Of a stretch of 64,000 nt of DNA, positions 20,729 through 37,781 are shown piece after piece. The notes under the pieces are model-generated. The model was given only the letters and a program-made list of their open reading frames with translations, made no database searches and was not told where the DNA came from. The number at the start of each line of letters is the position of its first letter. The stretch's first letter is position 1. A program made the translations under genes and the position numbers. Source of the DNA: Allomuricauda sp. (GTDB lineage Bacteria > Bacteroidota > Bacteroidia > Flavobacteriales > Flavobacteriaceae); contig NZ_JACESV010000001.1 in the NCBI RefSeq assembly GCF_013911645.1, positions 806,001 to 870,000 of the forward strand, in the 5' to 3' direction.

Positions 20729-21034
20729 TTACTTGTACTTGTTCATTTCCTCTTTGTCCTCATCCATATATTTTTGGATTTGACGCTCTTCCCAATCCTT
20801 GCCCAACAAGGGGTTGAACCCAAAGGTTCTGGATGCATGGAACAACACTCCCACCCCCCAAGCTACCAATGTGATAAAATGTTCCCATTGCCAAAAACTA
20901 TCTGACCTTAGGGAGATATTGATCAAAATAAAGGTGTTTATTACCACATAAATGGCCAAGTGTATATAAAAGCCTTTTAGTTCTTCAACCCTTTTCTTGG
21001 CTTTATTGTATTTTTCCTTATTAAAGTTTTCCAT
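20729..21034 (-). CDS. 2TM domain protein
   Basis: AKKRVEELKGFYIHLAIYVVIN ... FNPLLGKDWEERQIQKYMDED. Confidence 0.9.
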   Translation of the reverse strand: MENFNKEKYNKAKKRVEELKGFYIHLAIYVVINTFILINISLRSDSFWQWEHFITLVAWGVGVLFHASRTFGFNPLLGKDWEERQIQKYMDEDKEEMNKYK

Positions 21035-21036
21035 GA

Positions 21037-21339
21037 TTATTTCCATTTATTGTTCTGTTCTTCATCGCGCATAATCTTCTCTATCTTGCGCTTTTCCCAT
21101 TGTTTTCCAAAAAAAGGGTTAAGATCAAAAGTTTTAATGGCATGAAAAACAATACCGATACCCCACCCAAAAGCGGCCCACAAAAACCACATATAGCCAA
21201 AACCGGTGGTAAAATAATTGATCAGTGCCAATCCTGATATCACTAAAACATAGGAAGTCAGGTTTCCGTAAAACTTTTTAAGCTCGTCCACGCGCTCTCT
21301 TGCCCGCATGTACTTATTTTCTTTATCGGTATTTTCCAT
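21037..21339 (-). CDS. 2TM domain protein
   Basis: ARERVDELKKFYGNLTSYV ... LNPFFGKQWEKRKIEKIMRDE; start trimmed to MENTDKENKY. Confidence 0.9.
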   Translation of the reverse strand: MENTDKENKYMRARERVDELKKFYGNLTSYVLVISGLALINYFTTGFGYMWFLWAAFGWGIGIVFHAIKTFDLNPFFGKQWEKRKIEKIMRDEEQNNKWK

Positions 21340-21383
21340 GGTATTCGTATTTGATGTGATGTTGCAGTTAAAAATACTCATTA

Positions 21384-21662
21384 TTAAAATTCTTTATCGT
21401 TCATAAGTTCCTGAATCTTACGCTCTTCCCATTCTTTTCCAAAAAGGGGATTGTGTCCGTAAGCCGACATCCAGTGACCTATTAGTCCAAGTCCCCATCC
21501 CACGGCCGGAAAAATAATCCATGGGAAACTTGTAGTGCTATAATTGAGATATCCCAGTAAAGGAATCACAATTAGGTAAGCTGTAAGATTGTAGTAAAAA
21601 GATTTGATGCATTCCACCCTTTCCTTGGCTTTGGCATATCGAAGTTCTGTTGCGTTTTCCAT
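21384..21662 (-). CDS. 2TM domain protein
   Basis: AKERVECIKSFYYNLTAYLIV ... HNPLFGKEWEERKIQELMND. Confidence 0.9.
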   Translation of the reverse strand: MENATELRYAKAKERVECIKSFYYNLTAYLIVIPLLGYLNYSTTSFPWIIFPAVGWGLGLIGHWMSAYGHNPLFGKEWEERKIQELMNDKEF

Positions 21663-21693
21663 GACTGTTCGTTTTTGATTTTTGATTACACTG

Positions 21694-21764
21694 CTAAATT
21701 CGGTATAGCAACTCCCTTAATGAAAAATGAATTTCTGAACTGTGCATTTATTGGGATGAATTGT
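21694..21764 (-). promoter_or_regulatory. Candidate LytTR operator and promoter for the 2TM-LytTR operon
   Basis: Minus strand ACAATTCAT-N12-ACAGTTCAG, then 33 nt, then GAATTTAG. Confidence 0.6.
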
Positions 21765-21859
21765 AGTGTTGGGGTTTAGGGTTTGGGAGAGCAAGCAAAA
21801 AGGTTTGATGAAAACAACATAAAACCATTTTAATTGAACTTGAGCTTAGCTAGCCAAAG

Positions 21860-21926
21860 GGTTCTCGACTGCTCCTTCGACTGTCTGCCCGTGCGACTGG
21901 CGGGCGCTCAGGATGACAGCTCGAAC
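21860..21926. repeat. Nested palindromic intergenic repeat
   Basis: Minus strand: CTCGAGC..TGTCATCCTGAGCG[CCCGCCAGTCGCACGGGCAG]ACAGTCGAAGG..AGCAGTCGAGAACC. Confidence 0.6.
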
Positions 21927-21961
21927 TGACATCCGACATCCGACATCCGACATCCAAATTC
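21927..21961 (-). repeat. Solo heptanucleotide array abutting the histidine kinase stop codon
   Basis: TGACATC CGACATC CGACATC CGACATC CAAATTC (+ strand); last base is the first base of the stop codon complement cta. Confidence 0.8.
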
Positions 21962-23289
21962 TAAAAATCATCCTTATCCATAAGCTCCCTGATCTTGCGC
22001 TCTTCCCAGCGCTTGCCCCAAAGTGGGTTATAGCCGAAGGCTTCCATTCCATGCACAAGCACACCGAACCCCCAGCCGAATGTTGGAAAAAATGCCCAGA
22101 GAAAATCCGTTGTTCTAAAATTGAGCCACCACAAAAAGGGAATCACAATACAATAGGCCATAAGGTTGCCGTAAAAGTCCTTAATTGCCTTTACCCGTTC
22201 TTTGGCCTTTACGTACCGTTTTTCTTCGATATAGCTCTCTTGGGTCTCCAATATGGTATATTTTTGGGTGAGCATGGGCAGAGACACACTAAAATCCGTT
22301 TCTGTTTTTTTAACGACCATTTCGCGGTCGGTTAAAATACGGTAGCGTTGCTTTATATTCTGTAATCCGACCCCGCTGCTTTTTTTCACCACTTGTTTTT
22401 CTTGAAGGTTATTGCTCACGACCAACATGCCTTGTTGTTCAAAAACTTTGATGTGCAATGGCCTTGATGAAGTGACCACATTATGTTTTACGGCATTTTC
22501 CAGCAATAGTTGTAGGGACAGCGGCACAATTTTAGCTTCAGGTTGGGAACAGCTATCCGGAATATCGAAGATGATACTGTCCTCAAAACGCATCTTTAGA
22601 AGTCTTACGTAAGTTCTGGCGAACTTCAGTTCTTCATCCACGGTAACCAAGTCCTTATTTTTCTGCTCCAGCACATACCTATAAACTTTGGACAGTGATG
22701 TTGTAAAGTTTTGGGCCTGATGTGGGTCTTCATCTATCAAACTTGTTAAAACATTGAGGCTGTTGAACAAAAAATGGGGGTCCAACTGGTTTTTTAAAGC
22801 ATCGAAACGGGCAGATGCCGACCCTGCTATGATCTTCTGTTCTTTTACCTGCTTCTCTTTGTAATATTTATAGTAATAAGCAGCATAGAACAAAATGGCC
22901 ACTGCCATGGAAATCAAAAAAGAGCTCACATAATACTCCATGCGCTCTTCTGCCAAAAATTGATCTATTGATTTTTGATATACCAGCACCACCAGAACAA
23001 ATCTGGAAATACCAATTCCGATAATCGAGGCTATAACATTTCCCAGAAAACCATAGCCTATATATTTTTTCGTAAAAAGCTGTTTATCATACTTCCGCAT
23101 CAAAATGATAAAGGAAGCAGAGTTGAGCATATAAATAATCACGGAAAAAACCATACTCTCCCAAAACTCTGTCCAAAGCTCTTGAAAAGTAAGGTCCCAC
23201 CCCTTAACAAAAAAAATAATGAGCAAGACCATGTAAATGGCCACCCCCACTAAAAACGCCCTTACAAGTTCCCTTATTAAGAGTTTCAT
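21961..23289 (-). CDS. LytS-like sensor histidine kinase with C-terminal 2TM domain
   Basis: His_kinase motif LDPHFLFNSLNVLTSLI; ATPase SGVGLQNIKQRYRIL; C-terminal YVKAKERVKAIKDFYGNLMAY ... YNPLWGKRWEERKIRELMDKDDF. Confidence 0.93.
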   Translation of the reverse strand: MKLLIRELVRAFLVGVAIYMVLLIIFFVKGWDLTFQELWTEFWESMVFSVIIYMLNSASFIILMRKYDKQLFTKKYIGYGFLGNVIASIIGIGISRFVLVVLVYQKSIDQFLAEERMEYYVSSFLISMAVAILFYAAYYYKYYKEKQVKEQKIIAGSASARFDALKNQLDPHFLFNSLNVLTSLIDEDPHQAQNFTTSLSKVYRYVLEQKNKDLVTVDEELKFARTYVRLLKMRFEDSIIFDIPDSCSQPEAKIVPLSLQLLLENAVKHNVVTSSRPLHIKVFEQQGMLVVSNNLQEKQVVKKSSGVGLQNIKQRYRILTDREMVVKKTETDFSVSLPMLTQKYTILETQESYIEEKRYVKAKERVKAIKDFYGNLMAYCIVIPFLWWLNFRTTDFLWAFFPTFGWGFGVLVHGMEAFGYNPLWGKRWEERKIRELMDKDDF

Positions 23290-34163: not shown

Positions 34164-35720
34164 ATGCGTAACTCCTTACTCCTTCTGTTACTTTTTGCCA
34201 TTCTGATAAGTTGTGATACCAAAACAGAAAAAAAACTGCCTCGAATAGCCATTGCAGGACTGGGGATTGAATCCAGTACGTTTTCGCCCGCCCTTACGCA
34301 TGAAGAAGCATTCCATCCCAAAATTGGAGATTCCATATTTAACCGCTACTCTTTTATGGATACAGATTCTTCCTTGAGAAAACGAGCCGAATGGGTTCCC
34401 ACTTTAGTGGGAAAATCATTGCCCGGGGGAACCGTAACTCGAGAAGCTTACGAATCCTTGGTGGGCAAAACATTAAAAATGTTGGAAGAAAATAAGCCTT
34501 ACGATGGGCTTTTCTTTGACATTCATGGAGCCATGAGCGTTGTTGGACTAGATGACCCAGAAGGAGACCTCATCAAACGTATTCGAGAAGTTGTGGGAAC
34601 CGACGTATTGATTTCGACCTCCATGGATCTCCATGGCAATGTTTCCAAACGATTGGCACAACATTCCGATTTGATTACTTGTTACAGAATGGCTCCACAC
34701 GAAGATGCCACCGAATCGCGCAAAAGAGCCGTGAAAAACTTGGTGTCACGATTAGAAAACGGAAAAGGCAAACCCAAATACAAAGCTTGGGTTCCCATAC
34801 CGATTTTATTACCCGGCGAAAAAACAAGCACACGAGTAGAACCCGGAAAAAGTCTTTACGCCAAAGTGCCCGAAGTGGAGCAAAAAGAAGGCGTAATCGA
34901 TGCCGCTATCTGGATTGGCTACGCTTGGGCCGATGAACCCCGAAACCATGCCGTGGTCATGGTTACAGGAGATAATAAAGACCAAGTAACCGAAGGAGTT
35001 GAAAAATTGGCTAATAGTTTTTGGGATGTCCGCGAAGAATTTGAGTTCGTAGCCCCCACAAAATCCTACGAAGAAGCATTGGAACTTGCTTTGGCGAGTG
35101 ACAAAAAACCATTTATGTTGAGTGATATGGGCGACAACCCCACCGCTGGTGGCGCAGGTGATGTTACTTGGACATTGACGGAGCTTTTAAAAAGGGAGGA
35201 GTTTCATACAGTAGGTGGCAAATCCTTGATTTACGCCTCTATTCCCGGGCCTAAATTGGTGGAACAAGCTATGCAAGTTGGCGTTGGCGGAGAAGTCAGT
35301 GCTCCTGTTGGTGCCGATATTGACGATAGATATGCCCCACCCCTTATGCTAACGGGAGAAGTTACTGCCATAAAACATGGCGATGTTCATGCAGAAACCG
35401 AGGTTGTGGTACGAGTGGACAATGCCCATGTTATTGTGACCAAAAAGAGGAAACCCTACCACAGAAAATCTGACTTTACCAATTTGGGACTTGTTCCCAG
35501 TGAAACGGATATTATAGTAGTTAAAATTGGGTATTTGGTTCCAGAACTTTATAATATGCGAGGGGATTGGGTCATGGCCTTGACCCCAGGTGGCGTGGAC
35601 CAAGATTTGGAACGTTTGGGCCATAAAAGAATTATTAGACCCATGTTCCCATACGACCCCGACATGGAGCGCCCCGACCTTTCTGCCCGATTGATCAAGG
35701 CTTCGGATGAACTGGACTAA
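34164..35720 (+). CDS. M81 family metallopeptidase (MlrC-like) lipoprotein
   Basis: RIAIAGLGIESSTFSPALTHEEAF; GLFFDIHGAM; TSMDLHGNVS; DMGDNPTAGGAGD; lipobox LLFAILISCDT. Confidence 0.88.
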   Translation: MRNSLLLLLLFAILISCDTKTEKKLPRIAIAGLGIESSTFSPALTHEEAFHPKIGDSIFNRYSFMDTDSSLRKRAEWVPTLVGKSLPGGTVTREAYESLVGKTLKMLEENKPYDGLFFDIHGAMSVVGLDDPEGDLIKRIREVVGTDVLISTSMDLHGNVSKRLAQHSDLITCYRMAPHEDATESRKRAVKNLVSRLENGKGKPKYKAWVPIPILLPGEKTSTRVEPGKSLYAKVPEVEQKEGVIDAAIWIGYAWADEPRNHAVVMVTGDNKDQVTEGVEKLANSFWDVREEFEFVAPTKSYEEALELALASDKKPFMLSDMGDNPTAGGAGDVTWTLTELLKREEFHTVGGKSLIYASIPGPKLVEQAMQVGVGGEVSAPVGADIDDRYAPPLMLTGEVTAIKHGDVHAETEVVVRVDNAHVIVTKKRKPYHRKSDFTNLGLVPSETDIIVVKIGYLVPELYNMRGDWVMALTPGGVDQDLERLGHKRIIRPMFPYDPDMERPDLSARLIKASDELD

Positions 35721-36370
35721 ACAGTTACGGCTTGATTTAAATATTGCCGAAAGGGAAGCATTTCCTTGTAAACGGCAACGATTTTTTCTTTGAAATCAGG
35801 ATTCAGCACGTCTGCTTTTGTCAGTTTGTACTCCACCGCGAAGGTTTTGTTGCGCAACAATTCAATATGCGGATGGTCGTTGGAAAACCCTTTGGGGGAT
35901 GACACCAATTTCTCGTCCTCATATAAGCCGCCAAACATTTTTTTGAAGGATGGTTTGTCCAGAATCTGCTGCAATTCCTCACCATTATAATCAATGGCAT
36001 CTCGGATACTGCGAAGCGTTTTGGAGTCAGGTCGCCATCGACCGCCTGCCAACAAGCAATGTTTTAGTCCAATTTCAATATAAAAATCGGCGGAATTGGG
36101 CGCTTTGTCCAACCCTGCACCCAAATGGTCTTTGTAGATAGGTTTATTCGGATGGAACATTAAATTATTATTGATTCTGTTGATGCCCTTTTTGCCTGGA
36201 GTTGGGTAATAATCGTCATGGAGTTGTACCATGGTCAAATCCAAATCATCCAACCAAGCGATAAAATCGTTGCGAAGGGATTTGTACCATTTGCGGTTCG
36301 CATCCATCCATTCTTTGTTATTGTTCTTTTGAAGTTCTTCTAGAAAATGGAACAGGTCGTTGAAATTCAT
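35717..36370 (-). CDS. DUF2461 (TIGR02453) family protein
   Basis: LHFLEELQKNNNKEWMDANRKWYKSLRNDF; NRDIRF-like region NRINNNLMFHPNKPIYKDHLGAG. Confidence 0.88.
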   Translation of the reverse strand: MNFNDLFHFLEELQKNNNKEWMDANRKWYKSLRNDFIAWLDDLDLTMVQLHDDYYPTPGKKGINRINNNLMFHPNKPIYKDHLGAGLDKAPNSADFYIEIGLKHCLLAGGRWRPDSKTLRSIRDAIDYNGEELQQILDKPSFKKMFGGLYEDEKLVSSPKGFSNDHPHIELLRNKTFAVEYKLTKADVLNPDFKEKIVAVYKEMLPFRQYLNQAVTV

Positions 36371-36440
36371 GGATTGTTCGGTGTTGGATGTTTGATGCTC
36401 GGTGTTTGGTGTTCGGTGTTCGGTGTTCGGTGTTTGATGT
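36371..36440. repeat. Left heptanucleotide array of the four-helix-bundle cassette
   Basis: 10 in-phase heptads: GGATTGT TCGGTGT TGGATGT TTGATGC TCGGTGT TTGGTGT TCGGTGT TCGGTGT TCGGTGT TTGATGT. Confidence 0.9.
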
Positions 36441-36463
36441 TAAGGGTCTTTAATGATGTGAAG

Positions 36464-36826
36464 CTATATCTTGTTTCGAAAAGCTATAATCATGTTCATT
36501 AACTTGAAACAACAATCATATAATTTTTCAAATTCCTTATCGGAAATATACGCTCTATTACTAGCCTTATACAAACAAGTCACCACTTCTGCCAGTGAAC
36601 GTACAGAATAACCCAGAAACTTTCTCAACTCAGGCTTTGACTGAACAATGGAACCTTCAGAAATATTAAGGGCCACCGAATCTGCTGCTCGACAGATTTG
36701 GGATGATAAGTTATATGTTTCTTTTTTGGGAAAATCATTGGTAATCAAGTTTATTTGTTCTCCCAAATTCATGGCATCCTGCCATATATGTAGTCTTTCA
36801 AATTTAAACTTTGTTTTTCCAACCAT
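36464..36826 (-). CDS. Four helix bundle protein (23S rRNA IVS-protein family, PF05635-like)
   Basis: MVGKTKFKFERLHIWQDAMNLGEQINLITNDFPKKETYNLSSQICRAADSVALNISEGS; family signature LxxW..A..L and SxSxxxNIxEG-like; start trimmed from 36871. Confidence 0.9.
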   Translation of the reverse strand: MVGKTKFKFERLHIWQDAMNLGEQINLITNDFPKKETYNLSSQICRAADSVALNISEGSIVQSKPELRKFLGYSVRSLAEVVTCLYKASNRAYISDKEFEKLYDCCFKLMNMIIAFRNKI

Positions 36827-36843
36827 ATAACAATTGACATTCT

Positions 36844-36878
36844 GCATCAAGCACCTAACATCCGGCTTCAAGCAACTT
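36844..36878. repeat. Degenerate heptad array just upstream of the four-helix gene
   Basis: GCATCAA GCACCTA ACATCCG GCTTCAA GCAACTT. Confidence 0.65.
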
Positions 36879-36918
36879 AAAATCTATTATCAATACTTAC
36901 TTTTATTCTTTTGGAATT

Positions 36919-36981
36919 GAGCTTCCAAGCTCAGACTTCTGACTTCTGACTTCGGACATCCAACACCCAACACCCGACATC
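36919..36981. repeat. Right heptanucleotide array of the four-helix-bundle cassette
   Basis: GAGCTTC CAAGCTC AGACTTC TGACTTC TGACTTC GGACATC CAACACC CAACACC CGACATC; last base is the first base of the next gene's stop complement cta. Confidence 0.88.
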
Positions 36982-37781
36982 TAAAACCTATTATCCCCAT
37001 CCAACAAATCGCCGATACCGCCCAAAATGCTACCTTCTCCCTTGTCTTTTCCGCCACCTCTCGGTGCAGCGGCCCAAACTCGGCTGGCCAACCTACTGAA
37101 CGGCAAGGATTGAATATAAACGGTTCCCGGACCACGTAGCGTAGCAAAGAAAAGTCCTTCCCCGCCAAAAACAGTATTTTTAATGCCGCCCACAAACTCA
37201 ATATCATAATCCACAGTTTGGGAAAAACCAACAATACAGCCTGTATCCACTTTTAAGGTCTCTCCAGGTGCCAATGTTTTTTTCGCCATGGTTCCACCAG
37301 CGTGCACAAAGGCCATTCCGTCACCTTCCAGCTTTTGCATAATAAAGCCTTCGCCTCCAAAAAACCCACGGCCCAAGCGTTTGGAGAACTCAATGCCCAC
37401 GGAAACACCTTTAGCGGCACAAAGGAATGCATCCTTTTGGCAAATAAACTTGCCGCCTTTTTCGGAGAGATCTATGGGGACAATTTTACCTGGATAAGGC
37501 GAAGCAAAGCTCACAAGTTTTTTACCTTGACCAATGTTCAAGAAAGCGGTCATAAAAAGGCTCTCGCCCGTGAGCATTCGTTTACCTGCGGAGAACAATT
37601 TGCCCAATACCCCAGTATCTTGGTTGGAACCGTCCCCGAAGATGGTATCCATTTTAATATCGGTATCCATCATCATGAAACTGCCGGCTTCGGCAACAAC
37701 GGCTTCTTGTGGGTCCAGTTCTATTTCCACATATTGCATTTCTTCGCCGTAAATGTGGTAGTCTATTTCGTGTGCGTTCAT
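36981..37781 (-). CDS. TIGR00266 / AIM24 family protein
   Basis: [63 protein letters not shown]. Confidence 0.9.

What the first reader, a model, noticed from the sequence alone, without database searches (positions are those of the whole stretch)
36371..36981. Four-helix-bundle gene bracketed by inverted arrays of 7-bp repeats: candidate undescribed mobile or RNA-forming element
The sequence shows 10 in-phase heptads at 36371-36440 (TCGGTGT/TTGATGT type) and 9 at 36919-36981 (CAACACC/GGACATC/TGACTTC type). A short degenerate block of 5 heptads lies at 36844-36878. The right-hand units are reverse complements of the left-hand ones (left rc: acatccaacaccgaacac; right: acatccaacacccaacac), so the arrays could pair into a long imperfect stem enclosing the gene. 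The gene belongs to the 23S rRNA IVS-protein/four-helix-bundle family. Established knowledge: some family members are encoded inside 23S rRNA intervening sequences that are also bounded by complementary stems, and a related fold (Avd) works with DGR reverse transcriptases. Here the cassette is outside rRNA and has no transposase. It fills exactly the space between the stop codon of a TIGR00266 gene and the start codon of a DUF2461 gene. Inference: a self-contained heptad-repeat element that either moves using a host or trans-encoded enzyme, or makes a structured RNA bound by the helical bundle.
Basis: partly seen in the sequence, partly recalled or inferred. Interest (0 to 1): 0.92.

Follow-up and report, generated by a model that had tools for sequence, protein, structure and literature searches.

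The report
Pentamer-protein gene between five-heptad inverted arrays
A small bacterial gene family of unknown function (the '23S rRNA intervening sequence protein', a five-membered ring in its solved relatives) turns out, in very different bacteria, to sit between two mirror-image arrays of about five 7-letter DNA repeats whose sequence is private to each copy, pointing to an undescribed kind of self-recognising genetic element and a possible answer to what this family does.

Summary
The heptads lie at the stated coordinates and are the two strongest period-7 signals in the window. I tested 267 PF05635/TIGR02436 loci, chosen by protein match and not by flanks: same genus, Bacteroidota, other phyla, viral contigs, plasmids. 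86% carry significant 7-bp (sometimes 8-bp) arrays, against about 1% of ordinary intergenic regions. The two arms are inverted. They share a unit private to the locus and the same period (7/7 127, 8/8 20, mixed 2), and they change together at orthologous sites. About five units per arm is the mode; solved relatives are five-chain rings. Two tests weigh against a selected RNA stem: shuffling heptad order in one arm does not reduce pairing, and there is no G·U excess. I favour two inverted arrays of one recognition motif (DNA-level, end/operator-like) bound by the gene's own pentamer, one heptad per subunit. Binding, strand and mobility are inferred, not shown. RT is absent from most gene-rich relatives, against a DGR-like mechanism. 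I found no description of this link in the held literature; heptameric repeats and the protein family are each known.

The parts
36371..36440 (+). 3' arm of the element (downstream of the gene, which is on -): ten heptads TCGGTGT/TTGATGT; abuts the DUF2461 start codon
   Evidence: pairs best with the inner block 36844-36878
36467..36826 (-). four-helix-bundle (IVP) gene, 120 aa, ATG start; PF05635 / TIGR02436
   Evidence: AF2 model pLDDT 95.6 and TM 0.92 to 2gsc
36844..36878 (-). 5' arm proper: five degenerate heptads (TTGATGC, TAGGTGC, GGATGTT type on the coding strand); this is the 5' arm in relatives G004 and G017
36919..36981 (-). outer nine-heptad array (GGTGTTG / GATGTCC / GAAGTCA on the coding strand), an addition seen in this genome and absent in G004/G017; overlaps the AIM24 stop codon by one base
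36984..37781 (-). upstream neighbour, AIM24 / TIGR00266 family
35717..36370 (-). downstream neighbour, DUF2461
21928..21955 (+). solo heptad array (GACATCC)4 just 3' of a histidine-kinase gene, no four-helix gene; related unit

Best explanation
The gene and its two arrays form one small self-recognising element. SHOWN: in most PF05635/TIGR02436 loci tested, from many bacterial phyla, the gene lies between two inverted arrays of about five 7-nt (sometimes 8-nt) units. The unit is specific to the locus but common to its two arms, carries a G-containing core (AG/GG) at a fixed phase, reads inward at both ends, and changes at both arms together. INFERRED: the arrays are binding sites of the gene's own product. 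The product is a ring of five four-helix bundles (as in solved relatives), so one heptad meets one subunit and five heptads fill a ring. Because both arms show the same motif in inverted orientation, and because neither heptad order nor wobble pairing matters, recognition probably acts on DNA (terminal-inverted-repeat- or operator-like) rather than on a folded transcript. The likely consequence is a nearly neutral, slowly spreading element kept in the gaps of operons, with gene-less arm pairs as derivatives or remnants. The ORF-bearing 23S rRNA intervening sequences would be relatives that landed in an rRNA gene.
For: Genus plus phylum set of 66 loci against 1083 control ORFs: inverted pairing 27.8 vs 18.0 (p 2e-30), period 7 p 4e-22 / 3e-25, control periods and direct orientation not significant. 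Independent named set, 78 loci: period 7 best of 4-12 in 66 and 63 arms, own-arm pairing z 23.3. Viral plus plasmid set, 36 loci: z 16.0. Arrays in about 1% of ordinary intergenic regions vs 229/267 loci. Period agreement of arms, Fisher 7e-23, with about 12 changes on the protein tree. Arms at the same genomic site match their own partner better than the partner from another species, permutation p<1/2000; strongest where the protein subfamily differs at the same site. Mode of five: RG chains at spacing 7 in 98 non-redundant loci, upstream n4/n5/n6 = 12/22/15, reverse-complemented downstream 12/25/4; median 5.0 units. Homopentamer: 2gsc and 2rld have 5 chains each; toroid stated in PMC4990558. 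Structural kinship to Avd in DGR RNPs. Inward polarity: AG 91 vs CT 7 upstream, 83 vs 9 downstream. Heptad order irrelevant; no G.U excess. Protein and unit similarity correlate across different contexts (Mantel r 0.15).
Against: No binding data. Five units per arm is a mode, not a rule (3-16 seen; this locus has ten and nine in its long arrays). Some loci (14%) lack detectable arrays, and a few have both arrays in one orientation. Gene-less arrays occur in genomes without any PF05635 gene (G022 at the AIM24 site), so the arrays do not need the protein to persist. No recent transposition was found, and contexts are largely vertically kept. The protein-unit correlation across contexts is weak and partly confounded by relatedness and base composition.
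Confidence: 0.45

Rival explanations
1. RNA-level intervening sequence: the two arms pair in the operon transcript into a long imperfect stem that encloses the gene and is cut by RNase III, as in 23S rRNA IVSs; the protein binds or ignores this RNA.
For: Same protein family as 23S IVS ORFs; operon gaps with co-directional upstream gene in 139/146; RNA duplex energy own -33.5 vs swapped -25.0 kcal/mol; one locus lies between two tRNA genes; RNase III excision of the Coxiella IVS.
Against: Heptad order in one arm can be shuffled without loss of pairing (24.8 vs 25.05, p 0.90); mismatches show no G.U excess over A.C (146 vs 185); the fixed AG/GG core and the count of about five are not needed for a stem.
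Confidence: 0.22
2. Mutational by-product: 7-bp tandem repeats grow by polymerase slippage, and the two arms are kept alike by hairpin template switching or gene conversion, without any role for the protein.
For: Heptameric repeats are over-represented in bacteria and slippage has been proposed (PMC4692102); gene-less hairpins and perfect recent expansions exist, for example (ACACCAA)12 in G034.
Against: Does not predict why 86% of PF05635 loci but about 1% of other gaps have arrays, why the mode is five with a drop at six, or why the core and inward polarity are constant across phyla.
Confidence: 0.18
3. TRAP-like autoregulation: the pentamer wraps the upstream array of its own mRNA (five G-containing heptads) and controls translation or termination; the downstream array is the competing antisense strand.
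For: Upstream arm close to the start codon, G core at a fixed spacing, about five units, and a pentamer.
Against: The downstream arm carries the motif on the antisense strand and shows the five-unit mode even more sharply, which a sense-RNA binder does not explain.
Confidence: 0.1
4. Retroelement: the protein works like Avd with a reverse transcriptase supplied in trans.
For: Fold kinship to Avd, TM 0.71-0.76.
Against: 28 of 41 same-genus genomes have no RVT_1 hit, including those with 8-13 PF05635 genes such as G034, G012, G039, G033, G035.
Confidence: 0.03

Closest known systems
23S rRNA intervening sequences (IVS) with S23p/IVP ORF (Leptospira, Coxiella, Brucella)
   Same: Encode a member of the same protein family, bounded by complementary sequence, small (0.4-0.6 kb), sporadic, no transposase
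   Different: Here between protein genes of operons (or tRNA genes), not in rRNA; arms are arrays of about five heptads with a locus-specific unit; pairing is by motif, not by register
RAYT/REPIN (REP-associated tyrosine transposase with dispersed REP hairpins)
   Same: Gene flanked by inverted repeats, with gene-less copies of the repeat pair elsewhere (comparison from general knowledge)
   Different: No transposase; every gene copy has its own unit; gene-less pairs are rare in the genomes sampled
Heptameric simple repeats: cyanobacterial STRR, Xanthomonas GGGAATC and Nostoc GGGGA(C/T)T, Beggiatoaceae TAACTGA
   Same: Intergenic 7-bp tandem repeats, few units per array, in Xanthomonas about 70 inverted pairs (PMC4692102)
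   Different: No link to this protein family in the passages of those papers that were read; here the arrays are tied to PF05635 genes
Avd of diversity-generating retroelements
   Same: Four-helix-bundle fold that is part of a ribonucleoprotein
   Different: No reverse transcriptase nearby or, in most of the relatives, anywhere in the genome
TRAP (trp RNA-binding attenuation protein)
   Same: Ring protein and evenly spaced NAG-type repeats, one per subunit (works-like comparison, from general knowledge)
   Different: Unrelated fold; 7-nt spacing; the array is duplicated in inverse orientation on the other side of the gene

Membership tests
PF05635 / TIGR02436 (IVP, four helix bundle) | HMM score above curated cut-off | tested here: met
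   103.7 vs 33.8 bits; 97.9 vs 24 bits
PF05635 / TIGR02436 (IVP, four helix bundle) | four-helix-bundle fold of 2gsc/2rld | tested here: met
   AF2 pLDDT 95.6, TM 0.92 / 0.80
PF05635 / TIGR02436 (IVP, four helix bundle) | homopentamer | not testable with these tools
   inferred from relatives: five chains in each of 2gsc and 2rld, PMC4990558
23S rRNA IVS element | located inside a 23S (or 16S) rRNA helix | tested here: not met
   between AIM24 and DUF2461; no rRNA match in the window
23S rRNA IVS element | bounded by complementary sequences | tested here: inconclusive
   inverted arms yes, register-specific complementarity no
23S rRNA IVS element | excised from transcript by RNase III | not testable with these tools
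   needs RNA
DGR (Avd) | reverse transcriptase in the cassette or genome | tested here: not met
   no RT in the cassette; 28/41 relatives have none in the genome. The window's own genome does hold two RVT_1 matches elsewhere (C2:556927, C2:558420)
RAYT/REPIN | gene for a tyrosine (Y1) transposase | tested here: not met
   only PF05635 in the cassette
RAYT/REPIN | gene-less hairpins of the same repeat dispersed in the genome | tested here: inconclusive
   present at AIM24 and fadJ-thiolase sites and upstream of a GntR gene, but about 1% of gaps
classical transposon / IS | near-identical copies at several sites of one genome | tested here: not met
   8 copies in the genome, all with different units; no pair above 70% protein identity in truly different contexts
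classical transposon / IS | target-site duplication | not tested
   arms abut stop and start codons and turn over fast, so edges are not sharp enough
heptameric SSR (STRR-like) | 7-bp intergenic tandem repeats | tested here: met

The most novel reading that the evidence does not exclude
PF05635/TIGR02436 genes are the core of a pan-bacterial class of self-recognising elements in which a pentameric ring reads five consecutive heptads, one per subunit, at each of two inverted ends. Each lineage and locus has its own heptad 'address' that co-evolves with its protein. Many unexplained heptameric repeats of bacteria (STRR, GGGAATC and the like) are ends or gene-less derivatives of this class, and 23S rRNA IVSs are its rRNA-resident members.
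Probability: 0.35. Interest if true: 0.93.

Novelty: categorically new. Interest (0 to 1): 0.87.

Why it matters
S23p/IVP proteins have no known function (stated in PMC4990558), and heptameric repeats have been reported in several bacteria without an explanation. The coupling found here gives both a testable role: what the ring binds, with which stoichiometry, and whether the protein carries the code for the unit. It would also give an origin for ORF-bearing 23S rRNA intervening sequences, a caution that IVP genes found in CRISPR or metabolic operons may be insertions rather than functional partners, and a natural set of many protein-repeat pairs for learning sequence-specific recognition by a ring protein.

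Tried and rejected
Strict tandem-repeat counting showed only near-perfect arrays and missed most arms; replaced by a likelihood segment test. RNA stem as the selected feature: wobble test and heptad-order test did not support it. RT in trans: contradicted. Chance or general intergenic property: rejected. Recent transposition: looked for high-identity proteins in different contexts, none real (the apparent ones involve L029 at a contig end). A first consensus-based unit counter was too strict (19% of arms) and was dropped in favour. The literature searches for a link between the protein family and repeats gave no paper; the library is open access only.

Full report
OBSERVATION. The gene between them is PF05635/TIGR02436, on the same strand as both neighbours, and the cassette fills the gap from the AIM24 stop to the DUF2461 start.

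FIRST GENERALISATION. The same genome has eight PF05635 genes. By eye all eight have short-period arrays on both sides with complementary units, but with a different unit, and sometimes another period, at each locus. Same-locus flank pairing exceeded cross-locus pairing for most of them; L001 did not by this measure.

STATISTICS. Three sets of loci were taken by protein match alone. (a) 66 loci of the genus and phylum against 1083 control ORFs of the same kinds of genome: inverted pairing 27.8 vs 18.0 (Mann-Whitney p 2e-30), period-7 score p 4e-22 and 3e-25, while other periods and direct orientation were not different. (b) 78 of 80 loci from named organisms of many genera, with some MAGs labelled Opitutae, Chloroflexota, Atribacterota, Cloacimonadota, Endomicrobiales and Syntrophobacterales: 7 was the best of periods 4-12 in 66 upstream and 63 downstream arms, own-arm pairing permutation z 23.3. 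(c) 36 non-redundant loci from viral contigs and from plasmids of Cyanobacteriota, Gemmatimonadota and Azospirillum: z 16.0, period 7 dominant, units from AT-rich to GC-rich. Overall 229 of 267 loci (86%) have a significant array. In 400-kb samples of four genomes only 0-4 of about 170 intergenic regions have one. Genomes without any PF05635 gene gave 0 of 184 and 1 of 170.

ANATOMY. Oriented to the gene, the upstream array has the G-rich unit and the downstream array its complement: in-phase AG cores in 91 vs CT in 7 upstream arms, and 83 vs 9 for the reverse complement of the downstream arm. So the same motif reads inward at both ends. The commonest unit has an AG core (AGWANTR or AGWWTTG in the logos), with GG in G-rich genomes. 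In-phase chains exist at spacing 7 and hardly at 4-6 or 9-12. Chain lengths do not fall off steadily but peak at five: in 98 loci below 60% protein identity, n4/n5/n6 = 12/22/15 upstream and 12/25/4 downstream for RG cores. The likelihood segments have a median of 5.0 units in the named set. Solved relatives have five chains and the Xanthomonas protein is described as a homopentameric toroid (PMC4990558). The window protein models with pLDDT 95.6 and matches 2gsc at TM 0.92 and Avd of DGRs at 0.71-0.76. One heptad per subunit is my inference.

ARMS CHANGE TOGETHER. 147 loci fall into 21 shared genomic contexts and 23 singletons. Within a context an arm matches its own partner better than the partner from another species (permutation p below 1/2000 overall). 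The effect is carried by sites where different protein subfamilies sit in the same place: fadJ-thiolase, thiolase-acyl-CoA dehydrogenase, and a third site that looks like the trp operon (gene names here from reading the translations, not from a family search). Unit length also agrees between arms, 7/7 127, 8/8 20, 8/7 2, 7/8 0 (Fisher 7e-23), although the octad state changes about twelve times on the protein tree. Across different contexts, protein similarity and unit similarity correlate weakly (Mantel r 0.15). In the closest case, the subfamily of this window and its 60%-identical relatives in the third context share units of the form GNWGTYC (by eye).

SITES WITH AND WITHOUT THE GENE. At AIM24-DUF2461 the gene is present only in the window's genome, G004 and G017; the other 23 of 26 readable genomes have 48-289 nt, many with gene-less heptad arms. 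At fadJ-thiolase 13 of 30 genomes hold a cassette of 427-449 nt, others keep only a small hairpin of heptads or octads, and one has a gap of four bases. A GntR gene in G105 has a gene-less hairpin upstream. Elsewhere the gene lies between cas10 and cmr3, between cas6 and cas4, and between two tRNA genes.

DISCRIMINATING TESTS. The arms can form RNA duplexes (own -33.5 vs swapped -25.0 kcal/mol). But permuting the heptads of one arm leaves the match unchanged (24.80 vs 25.05), and mismatches do not prefer G.U over A.C (146 vs 185). The arms therefore look like two arrays of one motif rather than two halves of a selected stem. Reverse transcriptases are missing in most relatives rich in the gene.

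MECHANISM. I commit to recognition of both arrays by the gene's own pentamer, most likely as DNA (0.45). An IVS-like RNA stem (0.22), slippage with hairpin-mediated homogenisation (0.18) and TRAP-like autoregulation (0.10) remain. What the binding achieves (end recognition of a slowly moving element, self-limitation, or retention in operons) is not shown.

KNOWN OR NEW. The protein family, 23S IVSs with an IVP ORF, and heptameric repeats in Xanthomonas (186 arrays, about 70 inverted pairs), Nostoc and Beggiatoaceae are known (PMC4990558, PMC4692102, PMC4679880). A link between them was not found in the open-access library, so I rate the architecture as new. Subscription literature could not be searched. 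If 23S IVSs prove to have the same arms, 'new variant of a known kind' would be the better label.

LIMITS. Related loci are not independent, which I reduced by 60-80% protein clustering and by three separate sets. Some phylum labels rest on MAGs and may be misbinned. Rows of the genus search were cut, and no 23S IVS, Leptospira, Coxiella or Xanthomonas locus could be fetched.

Noticed in passing
window 21928-21955: Solo array (GACATCC)4 directly 3' of a histidine-kinase gene. Similar solo or mosaic arrays lie 3' of stop codons elsewhere in the genome (L013, L020, L021, L022), with several unit types side by side.
   Followed up: partly
window 21860-21925; loops in L087, L089, L090, L095, L097, L099, L101, L103, L104: A dispersed REP-like repeat (TGTCATTCTGAACGAAGTGAAGAATCTC type) sits beside the solo array and in the loops of gene-less heptad hairpins at the AIM24 site.
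   Followed up: no
window 20729-22064: A run of three small paralogous membrane-type ORFs whose sequence also forms the C-terminal part of the adjacent histidine kinase (21961-23289).
   Followed up: no
L414, L417 (cyanobacterial plasmids): The four-helix gene lies inside CRISPR operons (cas6-cas4, cas10-cmr3) with 7- or 8-bp arms. Reported CRISPR association of IVP may be operon insertion.
   Followed up: partly
L034, L037, L041, L046, L047, L196, L198, L199, L201, L221, L233: A subfamily (MHRFKDL...) with 8-bp instead of 7-bp units on both arms.
   Followed up: partly
G034 AIM24 site (L111): Gene-less site with six GGATGTC and twelve ACACCAA units about 100 bp apart, apparently a recent expansion of the same unit classes as at the window locus.
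   Followed up: no
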